64,000 nt of DNA from Futiania mangrovi (lineage in GTDB: Bacteria > Pseudomonadota > Alphaproteobacteria > Futianiales > Futianiaceae): the NCBI RefSeq assembly GCF_024158125.1, contig NZ_JAMZFT010000003.1, positions 310,001-374,000 of the forward strand, given 5' to 3'. How positions within the stretch are numbered: position 1 is the first letter of the stretch; every line of letters begins with the position of its first letter. This document shows, piece after piece, positions 920-5,543 of this stretch. The position numbers and the translations under genes are program-made. The notes below the pieces were generated by a model. It searched no databases. It was not told the origin of the DNA and was given only the letters and a program-made list of their open reading frames with translations.

Positions 920-975
920 CCCCCGTCCCATTTACAGACAACCAGGGTCAAACTTCGTTAACCATAAATAACCGA

Positions 976-1005
976 TTGCGCTATATCGTTCCATTCTGCT
1001 ACATT
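976..1005 (+). promoter_or_regulatory. promoter of the first EF-hand-like gene
   Basis: TTGCGC (976-981), an 18-nt spacer, then TACATT (1000-1005) preceded by TGC as an extended -10, 45 nt before the ATG at 1051, in a locally AT-rich stretch. It aligns with the sequence upstream of the second paralogue at the -35, the spacer (CGTT and CAT blocks) and TGCTACA. That conservation between diverged genes is the main evidence for function. Confidence 0.5.
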
Positions 1006-1050: not shown

Positions 1051-1920
1051 ATGGAAAGCCAGATCCTATCGTCCGGAATCGACACAAAGTACCAGGAGAT
1101 TGCCGGGGACGACGGCAAGATGACCTTCTGGGAGTTTGCAGACGCAGTCCGCAACGACGACAAGCTTCTGAAGCAGTTCGACAAGAACGGCGACGGGCGC
1201 CTCGGTTGCTGCGAGACGGTGAAGCTCTATTGGGACGTCATGAAGGGCTGCAAGATCGACGAGGACCGCGTGCGCGAGGTCCTCGGCGAGGCCGGCTACG
1301 GCGAAATGGACGAGGTTGGCGAGCAGTGCTGCCCCCCGTCTCCCTGCTCCTGCAACTGCGCCGGCGAAACGGACGGCGCCGAAGGGGCTGACGGCGCCGA
1401 CGACAGCGACATGACCCTCGGCGGCAATGCCCCGGCGACGGGGACCGGCGCAACCGGTGCAACCGGCGCAACTGGTGCCGACGACGGATGCTGCGCATGC
1501 GATGACGGCACCGAGGGCGCATCTCCCGACCGCGCCGCCGTCCTGGACGACGTGCTCGACCACCTGTCCGACGACGACCAGGTCTCCTTCGCCGAATTCC
1601 AGGGCCTCTACGGCAAGCATGGCGATGGCTCCATGTCCGCCGAAGACCTGCGGGACGCCTACAACGGTCTCGACAGCTTCGATGCGGAAAGCGTGACAGA
1701 TGGCCTGATGCATGCGTTCGGCGCAGGCACGTCCCTGTTGGACGACCTGCTCGATATGCTGGCCTACGACGGGCAGATCACGTTCGCGGAGTTCAAGGCG
1801 CTGATCGCCAAGCATGGCGGGTCGGACATGAGCGATGCGGAGCTGCGCGACCTCTACCGCAACGCCAACAGCTTCGACGCCGCAAGCATGCAGACGGCGG
1901 CCGACAGCGCGCTTGCCTGA
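1051..1920 (+). CDS. EF-hand-like repeat protein with Cys-rich insert (paralogue A)
   Basis: Function unknown; 289 aa, acidic, no signal peptide or membrane segment. Residues 17-55 form an EF-hand pair: a degenerate loop (GDDGKMTFWEF, 19-29), then a canonical loop DKNGDGRLGCCE (44-55) with Asp/Asn at positions 1, 3 and 5 and Glu at 12. It is the only full consensus loop in the cluster. Residues 53-152 carry 11 Cys, including EQCCPPSPCSCNC, and a collagen-like run of G-A-T triplets (about 131-143). Two copies of a module of about 62 residues follow (161-223 and 226-289); each pairs a [D/S]DxQ[V/I][T/S]FAEF loop with a GDGxMS- or GGSDMS-type half. Three paralogues follow. The start has AGAGGAG about 10 nt upstream. 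Calcium binding is inferred from family resemblance only. Confidence 0.8.
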   Translation: MESQILSSGIDTKYQEIAGDDGKMTFWEFADAVRNDDKLLKQFDKNGDGRLGCCETVKLYWDVMKGCKIDEDRVREVLGEAGYGEMDEVGEQCCPPSPCSCNCAGETDGAEGADGADDSDMTLGGNAPATGTGATGATGATGADDGCCACDDGTEGASPDRAAVLDDVLDHLSDDDQVSFAEFQGLYGKHGDGSMSAEDLRDAYNGLDSFDAESVTDGLMHAFGAGTSLLDDLLDMLAYDGQITFAEFKALIAKHGGSDMSDAELRDLYRNANSFDAASMQTAADSALA

Positions 1921-1925
1921 TACCG

Positions 1926-1944
1926 GCGCCCCGGAGAGGGGCGC
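1926..1944 (+). other. hairpin after paralogue A
   Basis: Perfect inverted repeat GCGCCCC / GGGGCGC with a 5-nt loop, directly behind the stop codon. There is no T-tract, so it may stabilise the mRNA 3' end ahead of the true terminator rather than terminate transcription itself. Confidence 0.4.
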
Positions 1945-1961
1945 ATCGCAACCCCGACACC

Positions 1962-1989
1962 AAGGCCGGCGGGCATCCCGCCGGCCTTT
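1962..1989 (+). terminator. rho-independent terminator after paralogue A
   Basis: A 12-bp perfect stem (AAGGCCGGCGGG / CCCGCCGGCCTT, arms 1962-1973 and 1977-1988) with a 3-nt loop and a short T run. It separates paralogue A from B, consistent with B having its own promoter. Confidence 0.8.
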
Positions 1990-2070
1990 CCTGCGCCCAT
2001 GCCCCGATTTCATCGTGTTGCGCGGGGGAACTGCGGCATCGCGTCGATTTGTCATCATTAATTTTTACAG

Positions 2071-2100
2071 TTGCGAGAGTGCGTTTCATAATGCTACAGT
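2071..2100 (+). promoter_or_regulatory. promoter of paralogue B
   Basis: TTGCGA (2071-2076), an 18-nt spacer and TACAGT (2095-2100) with an extended TGC, 47 nt before the ATG at 2148. Spacing and sequence match the paralogue A promoter (TTGCG, CGTT, CAT and TGCTACA shared). Confidence 0.5.
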
Positions 2101-2147
2101 TCTTGTGCATCTAGGCTGGATGTGAGGGCAACCGGAGGGCTGGGGCG

Positions 2148-2594
2148 ATGGCGACGGCTGAACTGAGATCCGATATCATTAGCGCAATGCGCAACGACGG
2201 CGCGGTCGACGCGCAGGAATTTGCCGATATCGTCCGCGGGAATTTCGGCGACGACATCTCCGATGCGGCGATCGACCAGGCGTTCGCAGAAATGTCAGGT
2301 TCCGACCTCAGCACCCCGCTCACCATTCGCGGCGCTGCCGAGCAGGCGGTCACCTATAATGGCGAGACGAGCAATGCCGGCGGCTCGGACGCCGGCCAGG
2401 CGGTTCAGGGCGCCCTGTCCGACGCGATGGAAGACGACGGGCAGCTCACCTTTGCCGAGTTCAAGGCGATCTACGCCACCCATGGCGACGGCACCATGTC
2501 GGACGCCGACCTGCGCGCTGCCTACAAGTCCGGCAGCAGCTTCAGCGCAGACGCCATGGCGGGCGCGCTGGCCGACGTCGGCGTGACGGGCGCG
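2148..2594 (+). repeat. 447-bp near-identical repeat, copy 1
   Basis: The 5' part of paralogue B. It matches 3435-3881 in paralogue C with one mismatch (A at 2219, G at 3506). Synonymous sites have not diverged, so the duplication or gene conversion was recent. Confidence 0.95.
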
Positions 2595-3371
2595 ACGGGC
2601 GGCGGCACATCCGCCAACGGATCCGGCGCAACCGGCGGCGGCACATCCGCCAACGGCTCGGGCGCAACCGGCGGCACCAGTGGCGGCGGCGGCACCGCCG
2701 ACAAGGACGCCGACTATTTCTACCCCTTCGCGGCGGGTGGCATTGCGATGTTCCTGCCCGCAGATGGCGTCTCGACTTTCGACACCTTCAAGCAGGGCGT
2801 CGTCGACACGATCGTCAACGACGGCGGGGACGCGGCTTGGGTTACCGACGCGGTCATCCAGCCCTATTTCGACGGAATCGCCGACAAGTCGGACTTCGAC
2901 CAGATCGTCCAGGCGGGCGCCGAGGCTTCGGCTGCGGCCTATGCCAACGGAACAGGCGCAACCGGCGGCACCAGTGGCGGCACGACAGGCGGCGGCACCA
3001 CGGGCGGCGGCACCACGGGCGGCGATGCGACAGGCGGCGCGACGGGCGGCGGTACGACAGGTGGCACCACGGGCGGCGGCACGTCGACAGGCAGTAACGG
3101 CTTCGTCTCCGCGGGCACCGATGCCCTGGGTCAGGACATCGATAATGACATTGACGGCATCGGCGGCATTGATTCGCTCGAATTCCGGAATGTCGTTGCC
3201 AACGAACTCATCAGACAGGGCTATCCAGGAAACTCGGTATTTTCGGAAGGAGAACTAGTCTCCATCATCCAGGATCAGTTCGAGACCATTGCCGACGGGA
3301 AGAACGGTCCCGAAGTCAGGGCTGCCGCCGAGCAGGCCATCGCCAACGTGATTGCCTCGAACCTGCTGTAA
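2148..3371 (+). CDS. EF-hand-like, Gly/Thr-repeat mosaic protein (paralogue B)
   Basis: Function unknown; 407 aa, no signal peptide or membrane helix. Order: N-terminal helical module with an EF-like loop (MRNDGAVDAQEF, 14-25) and a second half to about 70; a FAEF module (about 83-147); a Gly/Thr/Ser linker with GSGATGGGTSAN repeats (about 148-183); a unique helical module (about 184-268, with a WVTDAVIQPYFDG segment); a second linker rich in GGTTGG units (about 269-315); and a C-terminal EF-like domain (about 320-407). The first 447 nt differ from paralogue C at a single base (2219). The C-terminal part uses fewer GC-rich codons than the rest. Only the Asp-Gly and terminal Glu of each loop are conserved, so calcium binding is plausible but unproven. 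Confidence 0.78.
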   Translation: MATAELRSDIISAMRNDGAVDAQEFADIVRGNFGDDISDAAIDQAFAEMSGSDLSTPLTIRGAAEQAVTYNGETSNAGGSDAGQAVQGALSDAMEDDGQLTFAEFKAIYATHGDGTMSDADLRAAYKSGSSFSADAMAGALADVGVTGATGGGTSANGSGATGGGTSANGSGATGGTSGGGGTADKDADYFYPFAAGGIAMFLPADGVSTFDTFKQGVVDTIVNDGGDAAWVTDAVIQPYFDGIADKSDFDQIVQAGAEASAAAYANGTGATGGTSGGTTGGGTTGGGTTGGDATGGATGGGTTGGTTGGGTSTGSNGFVSAGTDALGQDIDNDIDGIGGIDSLEFRNVVANELIRQGYPGNSVFSEGELVSIIQDQFETIADGKNGPEVRAAAEQAIANVIASNLL

Positions 3372-3434
3372 GAGGCGCCGGGTGGCACCCGGAAATCCTT
3401 GTGGACCTGTGTTGCAGATGAGGAGTCTGGGGCA
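3371..3434 (+). repeat. duplicated 5' leader, copy 1 (before paralogue C)
   Basis: About 63 nt directly before the ATG are nearly identical to 4561-4622 before paralogue D, including the CCGGGT hairpin and the GATGAGGAGTCTGGGGCA ribosome-binding region. Paralogue B shares only the last few bases (CTGGGGC). Confidence 0.9.
3378..3392 (+). other. leader hairpin before paralogue C
   Basis: CCGGGT-ggc-ACCCGG, a perfect 6-bp stem with a 3-nt loop, in the 63-nt gap between B and C. The same hairpin recurs before paralogue D at 4566-4580. There is no T-tract. A role in mRNA processing or translation is possible. Confidence 0.45.
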
Positions 3435-3881
3435 ATGGCGACGGCTGAACTGAGATCCGATATCATTAGCGCAATGCGCAACGACGGCGCGGTCGACGCG
3501 CAGGAGTTTGCCGATATCGTCCGCGGGAATTTCGGCGACGACATCTCCGATGCGGCGATCGACCAGGCGTTCGCAGAAATGTCAGGTTCCGACCTCAGCA
3601 CCCCGCTCACCATTCGCGGCGCTGCCGAGCAGGCGGTCACCTATAATGGCGAGACGAGCAATGCCGGCGGCTCGGACGCCGGCCAGGCGGTTCAGGGCGC
3701 CCTGTCCGACGCGATGGAAGACGACGGGCAGCTCACCTTTGCCGAGTTCAAGGCGATCTACGCCACCCATGGCGACGGCACCATGTCGGACGCCGACCTG
3801 CGCGCTGCCTACAAGTCCGGCAGCAGCTTCAGCGCAGACGCCATGGCGGGCGCGCTGGCCGACGTCGGCGTGACGGGCGCG
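3435..3881 (+). repeat. 447-bp near-identical repeat, copy 2
   Basis: Matches 2148-2594 with one mismatch. A second shared stretch covers the GGTTGG linker and the start of the C-terminal domain (about 2962-3139 in B, 4044-4204 in C, with one 15-nt unit missing in C). Identity stops abruptly after that. Confidence 0.95.
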
Positions 3882-4439
3882 GGCGGCGGCGCCGGAAGCA
3901 CCGGAAGCAGCGGCGCCAACGGCTCGGGTGCGACGGGCGGCGGCACGTCCGCAAATGGCTCCGGCGCGACAGGCGGAGGCACGTCCGCCAACGGCTCGGG
4001 CGCAACCGGCGGCGGCACGTCCGCAAATGGCTCCGGCGCAACGGGCGGCACCAGTGGCGGCACGACAGGCGGCGGCACCACGGGCGGCGATGCGACAGGC
4101 GGCGCGACGGGCGGCGGTACGACAGGTGGCACCACGGGCGGCGGCACGTCGACAGGCAGTAACGGCTTCGTCTCCGCGGGCACCGATGCCCTGGGTCAGG
4201 ACATTGATCGCTTCGCGAACGATCCCGGTGGCATCAGGCATATACATTTCCAGGATGTTGTAGCCGACGAACTCCAAAGACAAGGCTACAACGGCAACCT
4301 TCCGCTTAGCCACGGACCGCTGTTCAACATCATCAAACAAGAATACAGCACCATTGGTGACGAGCAAAATGGCCCGGCAGTAAGGGCGGCTGCCGAACGC
4401 GCGATCGCCGGTATACTTGCCTACACACCGCCCACCTAA
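3435..4439 (+). CDS. EF-hand-like, Gly/Thr-repeat mosaic protein (paralogue C)
   Basis: Function unknown; 334 aa, no signal peptide. Residues 1-148 equal paralogue B. A single long Gly/Thr/Ser linker (about 149-244) with three perfect GSGATGGGTSAN units plus GGTTGG units replaces the linker-module-linker part of B, so the unique middle module of B is absent. The C-terminal domain (about 245-334, containing RFANDPGGIRHIHFQDVV) is homologous to those of B and D but clearly diverged, and richer in A and T. The start is the ATG matching paralogue B, with AGGAG about 12 nt upstream; an earlier GTG (3399) lies in the duplicated leader and is unlikely. Only 63 nt from B, so probably co-transcribed. 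Confidence 0.78.
   Translation: MATAELRSDIISAMRNDGAVDAQEFADIVRGNFGDDISDAAIDQAFAEMSGSDLSTPLTIRGAAEQAVTYNGETSNAGGSDAGQAVQGALSDAMEDDGQLTFAEFKAIYATHGDGTMSDADLRAAYKSGSSFSADAMAGALADVGVTGAGGGAGSTGSSGANGSGATGGGTSANGSGATGGGTSANGSGATGGGTSANGSGATGGTSGGTTGGGTTGGDATGGATGGGTTGGTTGGGTSTGSNGFVSAGTDALGQDIDRFANDPGGIRHIHFQDVVADELQRQGYNGNLPLSHGPLFNIIKQEYSTIGDEQNGPAVRAAAERAIAGILAYTPPT
3921..4040 (+). repeat. 36-bp in-frame tandem repeat (minisatellite)
   Basis: Units begin at 3921, 3957, 3993 and 4029 and each encodes GSGATGGGTSAN. Units 1 and 3, and 2 and 4, resemble each other most (GGCTCGGG versus GGCTCCGG), suggesting a 72-bp higher-order unit. Paralogue B has about 2.3 related units at 2591-2675. Such repeats allow in-frame expansion and contraction. 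Confidence 0.9.
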
Positions 4440-4520
4440 ACCGCAGCGCCACGAACTGCGAAGGCAATCGCGCACATGCGGGCGGCGTCCGAAACAACCA
4501 CAGAGAGAAAAACAGAATCC

Positions 4521-4550
4521 GCTTTCAATCTAGTTTCTCTTTGGTACACT
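4521..4550 (+). promoter_or_regulatory. possible promoter of paralogue D
   Basis: TACACT (4545-4550) preceded by TGG, with a spacer containing GTTTC that aligns partly with the A and B promoters. The -35 (GCTTTC) is poor. It lies in the 183-nt gap between C and D. Confidence 0.25.
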
Positions 4551-4560
4551 TGTATCAAAT

Positions 4561-4622
4561 AGACGCCGGGTGGCACCCGGAAATCGTTGTGAACCTGTGT
4601 TGCAGATGAGGAGTCTGGGGCA
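4561..4622 (+). repeat. duplicated 5' leader, copy 2 (before paralogue D)
   Basis: Second copy of the leader at 3371-3434, with the same CCGGGT-ggc-ACCCGG hairpin (4566-4580) and the same GAGGAGTCTGGGGCA ribosome-binding region. Confidence 0.9.
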
Positions 4623-5543
4623 ATGGCAAGTGCAGAACTGAGAGCCGACATCATCGCGGCGATGCGCAACGACGGTAAGGTCGACCTCGAGGAGTTCACC
4701 GATATCGTCAAGGAGAATTCCGGCGACGACATCTCCGACGAGGCGATCGAGAGGGCGTTCAACGAGATGTCCTCGTCGGACACGAGCACGCCTCTCGCCA
4801 TCCGCGACGCCGTCGGCGCCGCCGAGGAATACGACGCCGAGATGGAGGACGAAGCTTCCGGCTCCGACGTCGACCGCGCAGAGGTTCAAGACGACGTCCT
4901 CGACGCCCTTTCCGACGACGACCAGGTTTCGTTCGCCGAGTTCGAGGCGATCTACAACAAGTACGGCGACGGCTCCATGTCGTCCGACGAACTGCGCGAC
5001 CTTTACGAGAACGCCGACAGCTTCGATGCCGAGAGCATGACCGACGCCCTGATGGAAGCGTTCGGCAGCGGCATGAACGAAGAACTGATGGACGACGTGG
5101 TCGACGCGCTGGCCGACGACGACCAGGTGACGTTCGCCGAATTCCAGGCGCTGGTCGACAAGCACGGTGGCACGGACATGTCCGATGCCGAGCTGCGCGA
5201 CGCCTATTCTGACATCGACACCTTCGATGCCCAGAGCGTGTACGACGGCGTGATGGACGCGACCGGCGGCGGATCGTCGTCCGGCTCTTCGGGCGGGTCT
5301 TCCTCCGTCAGCGACGCGATCGACGACGCCATGGCCGATGGGCGGGTGGACGAGCCGGAGTTCCGTTCGATTGCCCTCGACGCGATCGAGGCGGCCGGCC
5401 TGCCGCGCACGGTCCTCAGCGACTCCGGTATCAATTCGATTTTCGCGGAGATCCAGAGAGAGGGGAACGACACCGACCCCGCCGAGATCCAGAAGGGCAT
5501 CGACCTCGCGGTCAGCATCGCGCGGGACATCGAGGCGCTCTGA
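4623..5543 (+). CDS. EF-hand-like repeat protein without long Gly linker (paralogue D)
   Basis: Function unknown; 306 aa, very acidic, no signal peptide. Order: N-terminal module (1-72) homologous to B and C (MRNDGKVDLEEF, 14-25); two FAEF modules (about 85-148 and 150-213) closest to those of paralogue A; a short Ser/Gly linker (214-228); and a C-terminal EF-like domain (229-306, MADGRVDEPEF). It therefore links the A type to the B/C type. Its N-terminus differs from B/C at many positions, so it is an older duplicate, although its leader is nearly identical to that of C. The gene ends 41 nt before a strong terminator. Confidence 0.8.
   Translation: MASAELRADIIAAMRNDGKVDLEEFTDIVKENSGDDISDEAIERAFNEMSSSDTSTPLAIRDAVGAAEEYDAEMEDEASGSDVDRAEVQDDVLDALSDDDQVSFAEFEAIYNKYGDGSMSSDELRDLYENADSFDAESMTDALMEAFGSGMNEELMDDVVDALADDDQVTFAEFQALVDKHGGTDMSDAELRDAYSDIDTFDAQSVYDGVMDATGGGSSSGSSGGSSSVSDAIDDAMADGRVDEPEFRSIALDAIEAAGLPRTVLSDSGINSIFAEIQREGNDTDPAEIQKGIDLAVSIARDIEAL

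What the first reader, a model, noticed from the sequence alone, without database searches (positions are those of the whole stretch)
1051..5543. Four-gene cluster of EF-hand-like modular proteins of unknown function
Four tandem genes (1051-1920, 2148-3371, 3435-4439, 4623-5543) encode acidic proteins built from the same parts: a FAEF module of about 62 residues with two helix-loop-helix halves, an N-terminal module in B, C and D, a C-terminal module in B, C and D, and low-complexity linkers. Loops mostly keep only the second half of an EF-hand ([D/N]Gx[I/V/L]xxxEF). None has a signal peptide or membrane helix. I recognise no described family with this plan. Candidate roles are calcium buffering, a cytoplasmic scaffold or a non-classically secreted matrix protein; the sequence does not decide among them.
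Basis: partly seen in the sequence, partly recalled or inferred. Interest (0 to 1): 0.85.

Follow-up and report, generated by a model that had tools for sequence, protein, structure and literature searches.

The report
Four orphan EF-hand-like modular protein genes
A bacterium of the alphaproteobacterial type carries four neighbouring genes for acidic proteins built from repeated, mostly worn-down versions of the calcium-binding EF-hand fold; the genes were found in no other genome searched, so this is an odd new branch of a familiar fold whose job is not yet known.

Summary
Four intact tandem genes (1051-1920, 2148-3371, 3435-4439, 4623-5543) encode acidic proteins (pI about 4.1) without hydrophobic signal or membrane stretches. 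Their N-terminal, FAEF, C-terminal and middle modules look like diverged copies of one ancestral module. Pfam recognises EF-hand domains above cut-off in A and D. AlphaFold gives four-helix modules whose nearest solved structures are almost all calmodulin-type EF-hand pairs (2.3-2.8 A over 63-70 residues for the best single modules; no significant Foldseek E-value). So the fold is probably known. Unusual features: only 1 of 15 half-loops has the first calcium ligand Asp, and a single further loop, in A, keeps all ligands. Gene C is a mosaic, with D's leader and B's body. No homologue was found in 84,980 species genomes, several hundred genomes of the class and phylum, phages, plasmids or viral contigs. 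The cluster is a 4.8 kb islet beside a conserved ETF-QO/uracil-DNA glycosylase pair. Best reading: an orphan, recombining family of mostly calcium-insensitive EF-hand-pair scaffold proteins, possibly exported; calsymin is the closest functional precedent, and the genome has type I and type III secretion genes. The mechanism is inferred. It is a new variant of a known kind.

The parts
1051..1920 (+). gene A, 289 aa: N-module with one complete EF-hand ligand set, Cys-rich disordered linker, two FAEF modules
1081..1296 (+). A N-terminal module (residues 11-82)
   Evidence: shuffle z 4.0-5.2 to B-N, B-F and D-N modules, 3.4 to D-F1
1180..1215 (+). the only EF-hand loop with full ligand set, DKNGDGRLGCCE (A 44-55); misses strict PROSITE PS00018 only at the residue after the loop
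   Evidence: Pfam EF-hand_6 at residues 39-52
1528..1722 (+). A FAEF module 1
1729..1917 (+). A FAEF module 2
2148..3371 (+). gene B, 407 aa: N, FAEF, GT-rich linker, middle module, GT-rich linker, C-terminal module
2148..2357 (+). B N-terminal module
2391..2582 (+). B FAEF module
2706..2951 (+). B middle module, most diverged copy; membership weakest
   Evidence: shuffle z 4.0 to B-C and 3.0 to D-C only; no Pfam match
3114..3368 (+). B C-terminal module
3435..4439 (+). gene C, 334 aa: N, FAEF, GT-rich linker, C-terminal module
3420..3890 (+). stretch of C 98.5% identical to B 2135-2606 (N and FAEF modules): recent duplication or gene conversion
4179..4436 (+). C C-terminal module, 54% identical in protein to B's despite the near-identical 5' half
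4623..5543 (+). gene D, 306 aa: four modules N, FAEF, FAEF, C
4623..4832 (+). D N-terminal module
   Evidence: own-genome profile E = 2.2e-4
4872..5066 (+). D FAEF module 1
5073..5267 (+). D FAEF module 2 (best structural match, calpain-3 EF-hand pair, Z 7.6, 2.3 A over 64)
5298..5540 (+). D C-terminal module; loop DAMADGRVDEPE keeps ligands at positions 1, 5 and 12
3370..3434 (+). leader of gene C with GC hairpin CCGGGTGGCACCCGG, 94% identical to D's leader; no other significant copy in the genome
4558..4622 (+). leader of gene D, homologous to that of C; fold not stronger than shuffles (z -1.07)
976..1004 (+). candidate promoter of A, TTGCGC-17-CTACAT
   Evidence: pattern found only upstream of A and B in about 180 kb
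2071..2099 (+). candidate promoter of B, TTGCGA-17-CTACAG

Best explanation
The four genes are a tandem, recombining family of paralogues restricted (so far) to this lineage. Each protein is a string of EF-hand-pair modules that descend from one module, separated in A-C by flexible Gly/Thr/Ser- or Cys-rich linkers. Shown: above-chance similarity among the modules, EF-hand sequence signature in A and D, predicted four-helix modules, loss of the first calcium ligand in nearly all loops, mosaic gene C. Inferred: the modules fold as apo-like EF-hand pairs that dock helical peptides of a partner without needing calcium, as myosin light chains do. A, with one intact loop, may add a calcium-dependent step, and the varied C-terminal modules of B, C and D may bind different partners. 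Also inferred, with lower confidence: B-D work outside the cytoplasm, exported by a route without signal peptide.
For: Pfam EF-hand_7 40.9 and 32.0 bits in A and D (cut-off 30), weaker in B and C. The FAEF profile lists calmodulins in the PDB sequence set. Four-helix modules in both AlphaFold models, FAEF modules pLDDT about 70-90. VIA-align rows almost all EF-hand proteins, many of them apo-calmodulin or myosin light chains, best single modules 2.3-2.8 A over 63-70 residues. Module homology by shuffling. Loop ligands. dN below dS in all eight module pairs, e.g. 0.19/0.73 for A-F1/D-F1 and 0.27/0.93 for B-N/D-N. Mosaic C gene. No Cys in 1,047 residues of B-D, against 0.74% in 98 other genes of the genome.
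Against: Foldseek gave no match below E = 0.001, and Z below 8 can reflect a common helical arrangement. The alignments behind the models hold only four sequences. No partner protein is known. Cys-free genes are not very rare here (6 of 65 genes of 300 aa or more), and A has 11 Cys. No export signal was demonstrated. Acidic residues crowd the loops (DDDQ), so weak calcium binding is not excluded.
Confidence: 0.4

Rival explanations
1. Calsymin-like secreted calcium-binding proteins: repeated EF-hand pairs exported without a signal peptide (type I or another route), acting outside the cell as matrix or host-interaction proteins through calcium.
For: [quoted passage not shown] PMC9860679). The genome encodes a PrtD-type type I transporter above cut-off (719.7 bits) near an RTX-like protein. 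B-D are Cys-free.
Against: Calsymin binds calcium, while most loops here lack ligands. The transporter is on another contig.
Confidence: 0.22
2. Substrates of the genome's non-flagellar type III secretion system, delivered into a eukaryotic partner where EF-hand-like modules bind host proteins.
For: SctV, SctT, SctR, SctQ and SctJ above NCBIfam cut-offs, with SctU, SctN and the N-terminal part of SctC below cut-off, at C2:713-725 kb. No signal peptide. A has a weak match to XopAW, an EF-hand type III effector family (E 0.0076, 16 bits).
Against: The XopAW score is far below the cut-off of 120 bits. The cluster is on another contig, and its A/B promoter pattern does not occur in the type III region. 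No chaperone gene beside it was recognised.
Confidence: 0.12
3. Cytoplasmic calcium or metal buffer, the acidic loops and A's Cys clusters binding metal ions.
For: Very acidic proteins, DDD clusters, one full loop in A, Cys clusters CCPPSPCSCNC and CCAC in A.
Against: Position-1 Asp lost in 14 of 15 half-loops. Known bacterial EF-hand buffers keep canonical loops (own knowledge: calerythrin, CabB). Gly/Thr linkers and module reshuffling serve no obvious purpose in a buffer.
Confidence: 0.14
4. TerB-like helical stress-response modules that resemble EF-hands by convergence (half-loop A-x-x-x-DG-x-V-x-x-x-E).
For: The half-loop pattern resembles that of TerB/DUF533 proteins (from memory); D has a very weak DUF533 match (E 0.22).
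Against: No TerB match in Pfam or NCBIfam, and structural neighbours are EF-hand pairs.
Confidence: 0.06

Closest known systems
Calsymin (CasA) of Rhizobium etli
   Same: Several EF-hand-motif domains in one protein; secreted (PMC10574481, PMC9860679); no signal peptide (from memory)
   Different: Calsymin binds calcium; here most loops are degenerate, there are four paralogues with GT-rich linkers in two of them, and no sequence link could be tested
Calmodulin superfamily EF-hand pairs (calmodulin, troponin C, myosin light chains, calpain penta-EF-hand domain)
   Same: Predicted module fold, best single modules 2.3-2.8 A over 63-70 residues; FAEF profile matches calmodulin sequences
   Different: About 8-18% identity, position-1 ligand missing, and the GDG motif lies in the link between the two predicted hands in one reading
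XopAW family type III effectors (NF041410)
   Same: EF-hand motifs, no signal peptide
   Different: 16 bits against a cut-off of 120
Small bacterial EF-hand proteins such as Caulobacter CaBP or Pseudomonas EfhP
   Same: Bacterial EF-hand proteins; this genome has a small one too at C1:1181138
   Different: Those have a signal peptide or membrane segment (PMC13171946, PMC4053335); A-D have neither and carry more modules

Membership tests
EF-hand superfamily | Sequence match to a curated EF-hand profile | tested here: met
   A 40.9 and D 32.0 bits to PF13499 (cut-off 30); A and D also over PF00036, A over PF13405. B and C stay below cut-off on their own but share homologous modules
EF-hand superfamily | Paired helix-loop-helix fold | tested here: inconclusive
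   Four-helix modules predicted and EF-hand pairs top the structure lists with Z up to 7.6, but Z is under 8 and Foldseek E-values are not significant
Canonical calcium-binding EF-hand (PROSITE PS00018) | 12-residue loop with ligands at positions 1, 3, 5, 12 | tested here: not met
   No PS00018 match in any of the four; only A 44-55 has all ligands, and it fails at the residue after the loop
Calsymin (CasA) | Several EF-hand domains in one protein without signal peptide | tested here: met
   3-4 modules per protein, no hydrophobic N-terminus; no dedicated signal-peptide predictor was available
Calsymin (CasA) | Sequence homology to CasA | not testable with these tools
   The original paper is not held and no CasA record was at hand to compare
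Calsymin (CasA) | Calcium binding and secretion | not testable with these tools
   Needs experiment; loop ligands argue against strong binding
XopAW (NF041410) | Score above the curated cut-off | tested here: not met
   A 16.1 bits, cut-off 120; no match for B, C, D
TerB / DUF533 | Match to the family profile | tested here: not met
   DUF533 11.5 bits against 29.6 in D; no TerB match

The most novel reading that the evidence does not exclude
A lineage-specific exported protein family in which a decayed EF-hand pair was turned into a general binding module and is being reshuffled by recombination: constant N-terminal and FAEF modules, a flexible linker and a diverged or swapped C-terminal module, giving a small repertoire of binding proteins in one bacterium.
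Probability: 0.2. Interest if true: 0.65.

Novelty: new variant of a known kind. Interest (0 to 1): 0.42.

Why it matters
Few bacterial EF-hand proteins have a tested function, and arrays of several modules are less usual still (own knowledge). This is an orphan cluster with mostly non-canonical loops, visible module duplication and a gene that is a mosaic of two neighbours, so it is a compact case of a eukaryote-like binding module expanding in a bacterium. It would matter more if the proteins prove to be exported or calcium-independent binders; at present it is mainly a well-defined target for a structure and a localisation experiment.

Tried and rejected
Homologues: P0004 in 58 relatives; FAEF profile in 385 genomes of the class and 398 of the phylum, overlapping sets. 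The two weak class hits lie in an arginyltransferase-like and a TrpD-like protein (names from my reading of the sequences) and were judged chance. Two degenerate-pattern scans of 84,980 species genomes, two of viral contigs (18, 34), phages and plasmids: nothing. Phage origin: no PHROGs match of note and no significant viral fold match. RNA element: no Rfam match (72), and the leader of D folds no better than shuffles (71). Mobile element borders: no repeats within either flank (the two flanks were searched apart, not against each other). A sigma-54 reading of the leader failed by spacing (by eye), and no terminator-like site was found on the coding strand. Long antisense ORFs opposite A-D were put down to high GC.
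Full report
Observation. They look like real coding sequences: third-position GC is 0.76-0.87 in a window of 69% GC, start sites carry purine-rich ribosome-binding sites, and dN is below dS in all eight module pairs compared (for example A-F1/D-F1 0.19 and 0.73; B-N/D-N 0.27 and 0.93). All are acidic with pI about 4.05-4.10, and none has a hydrophobic stretch that could serve as signal peptide or membrane helix.

Architecture. Twelve modules were cut out and compared with 300 shuffles each. The FAEF copies (B's and C's being near-identical) are clearly one family. The N-terminal modules of B/C and D are 66% identical to each other and align to the FAEF profile by profile comparison (E 1.9e-7). 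The N-module of D is found by the FAEF profile in a search of the whole genome (E 2.2e-4). C-terminal modules of B and D, the middle module of B and A's N-terminal part join with weaker but above-chance scores (z 3-5); C's C-terminal module joins through B's. The simplest reading is one ancestral module, duplicated and diverged. D is N-F-F-C, B is N-F-M-C, C is N-F-C, A is N'-F-F. Linkers in B and C are runs of Gly, Thr, Ala and Ser; A's linker has low predicted confidence and holds CCPPSPCSCNC and CCAC.

Fold. Pfam finds EF-hand_7 above its gathering score in A and D and below it in B and C. The FAEF profile against PDB sequences lists calmodulins. AlphaFold on shallow alignments gives four helices per module (D mean pLDDT 74.8, pTM 0.34; A's FAEF modules mostly 70-90, its N-part about 38-60). 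Foldseek gives no significant E-value, but VIA-align lists almost only EF-hand proteins: calpain-3, calmodulin, myosin light chains, troponin C, sorcin, with 2.3-2.8 A over 63-70 residues for the best single modules. I take the EF-hand-pair fold as likely, carried mainly by the sequence profiles.

Calcium. A canonical loop needs side-chain ligands at positions 1, 3, 5 and 12. In all fifteen half-loops position 5 is Asp and position 12 Glu or Asp, but position 1 is Ala, Ile, His, Met, Gly or Asn in fourteen; Asp is there only in D's C-terminal module. The one loop with all ligands, DKNGDGRLGCCE in A (44-55), is separate from that set. No loop meets PROSITE PS00018. Strong calcium binding by most modules is therefore unlikely; this is inference from sequence.

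Evolution. B 2135-2606 and C 3420-3890 are 98.5% identical and the linkers 94%, yet their C-terminal modules are only 54% identical in protein. The leader of C is instead 94% identical to D's leader, with no other significant copy in the genome. Gene C thus combines D's leader with B's body and its own end, which points to gene conversion or unequal recombination in the array. A and B share a promoter-like pattern found nowhere else in the roughly 180 kb scanned.

Context. Upstream lies uracil-DNA glycosylase, with ETF-quinone oxidoreductase divergent from it (named from its sequence); downstream moaB. In other genomes of the class the ETF-QO gene lies beside UDG in 19 of 29 loci examined, and in two of them moaB lies beside UDG within the short flank examined. 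The 4.8 kb cluster therefore looks like an insertion into this neighbourhood, slightly poorer in GC than its surroundings. No genome of the same order appeared among the relatives, so its age cannot be told.

Distribution. Nothing related was found in the genome, viral, phage or plasmid collections. Sensitivity limits are given under tried and rejected.

Mechanism. Degenerate EF-hand pairs in other systems bind helical peptides without calcium (own knowledge: myosin light chains). Repeated modules on flexible linkers suit a multivalent scaffold. Absence of Cys in B-D (about 7.7 expected at the frequency of 98 other genes) hints at an extracytoplasmic place but is not independent evidence for three related genes. 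The genome offers two signal-less export routes: a PrtD-type type I transporter near an RTX-like protein, and a non-flagellar type III system. Nothing links either to this cluster, so export stays a hypothesis. Calsymin of Rhizobium etli is the nearest functional precedent (PMC10574481, PMC9860679).

Verdict. The feature is real, its fold is probably known, its architecture and orphan status are unusual, and its function is unproven: a new variant of a known kind, of moderate interest.

Noticed in passing
G000 C2:713-725 kb (L029, L030): A non-flagellar type III secretion system: SctV, SctT, SctR, SctQ, SctJ above NCBIfam cut-offs, SctU and SctN below cut-off, and a short protein matching only the N-terminal part of the SctC secretin, directly beside a flagellar cluster.
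   Followed up: partly
G000 C1:1212350-1213966 (L031): PrtD-type type I transporter (719.7 bits) near a 1486 aa Cys-free protein with RTX-like C-terminal repeats.
   Followed up: partly
G000 C1:1181138 (L018): A separate small EF-hand protein with signal peptide-like N-terminus and canonical-looking loops, unrelated to the cluster.
   Followed up: no
window 958-973: TTAACCATAAATAACC upstream of gene A holds the CtrA half-site TTAACCAT, the only one in the 64 kb window.
   Followed up: no
window 1207-1500: Gene A has 11 Cys in clusters CCPPSPCSCNC, CCAC and a CC pair inside its EF-hand loop, whereas B, C and D have none.
   Followed up: no
window 2583-2705, 3870-4178: GT-rich linkers differ in repeat number between B and C (units such as GGGTSANGSGAT), as expected of slippage in tandem repeats.
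   Followed up: partly
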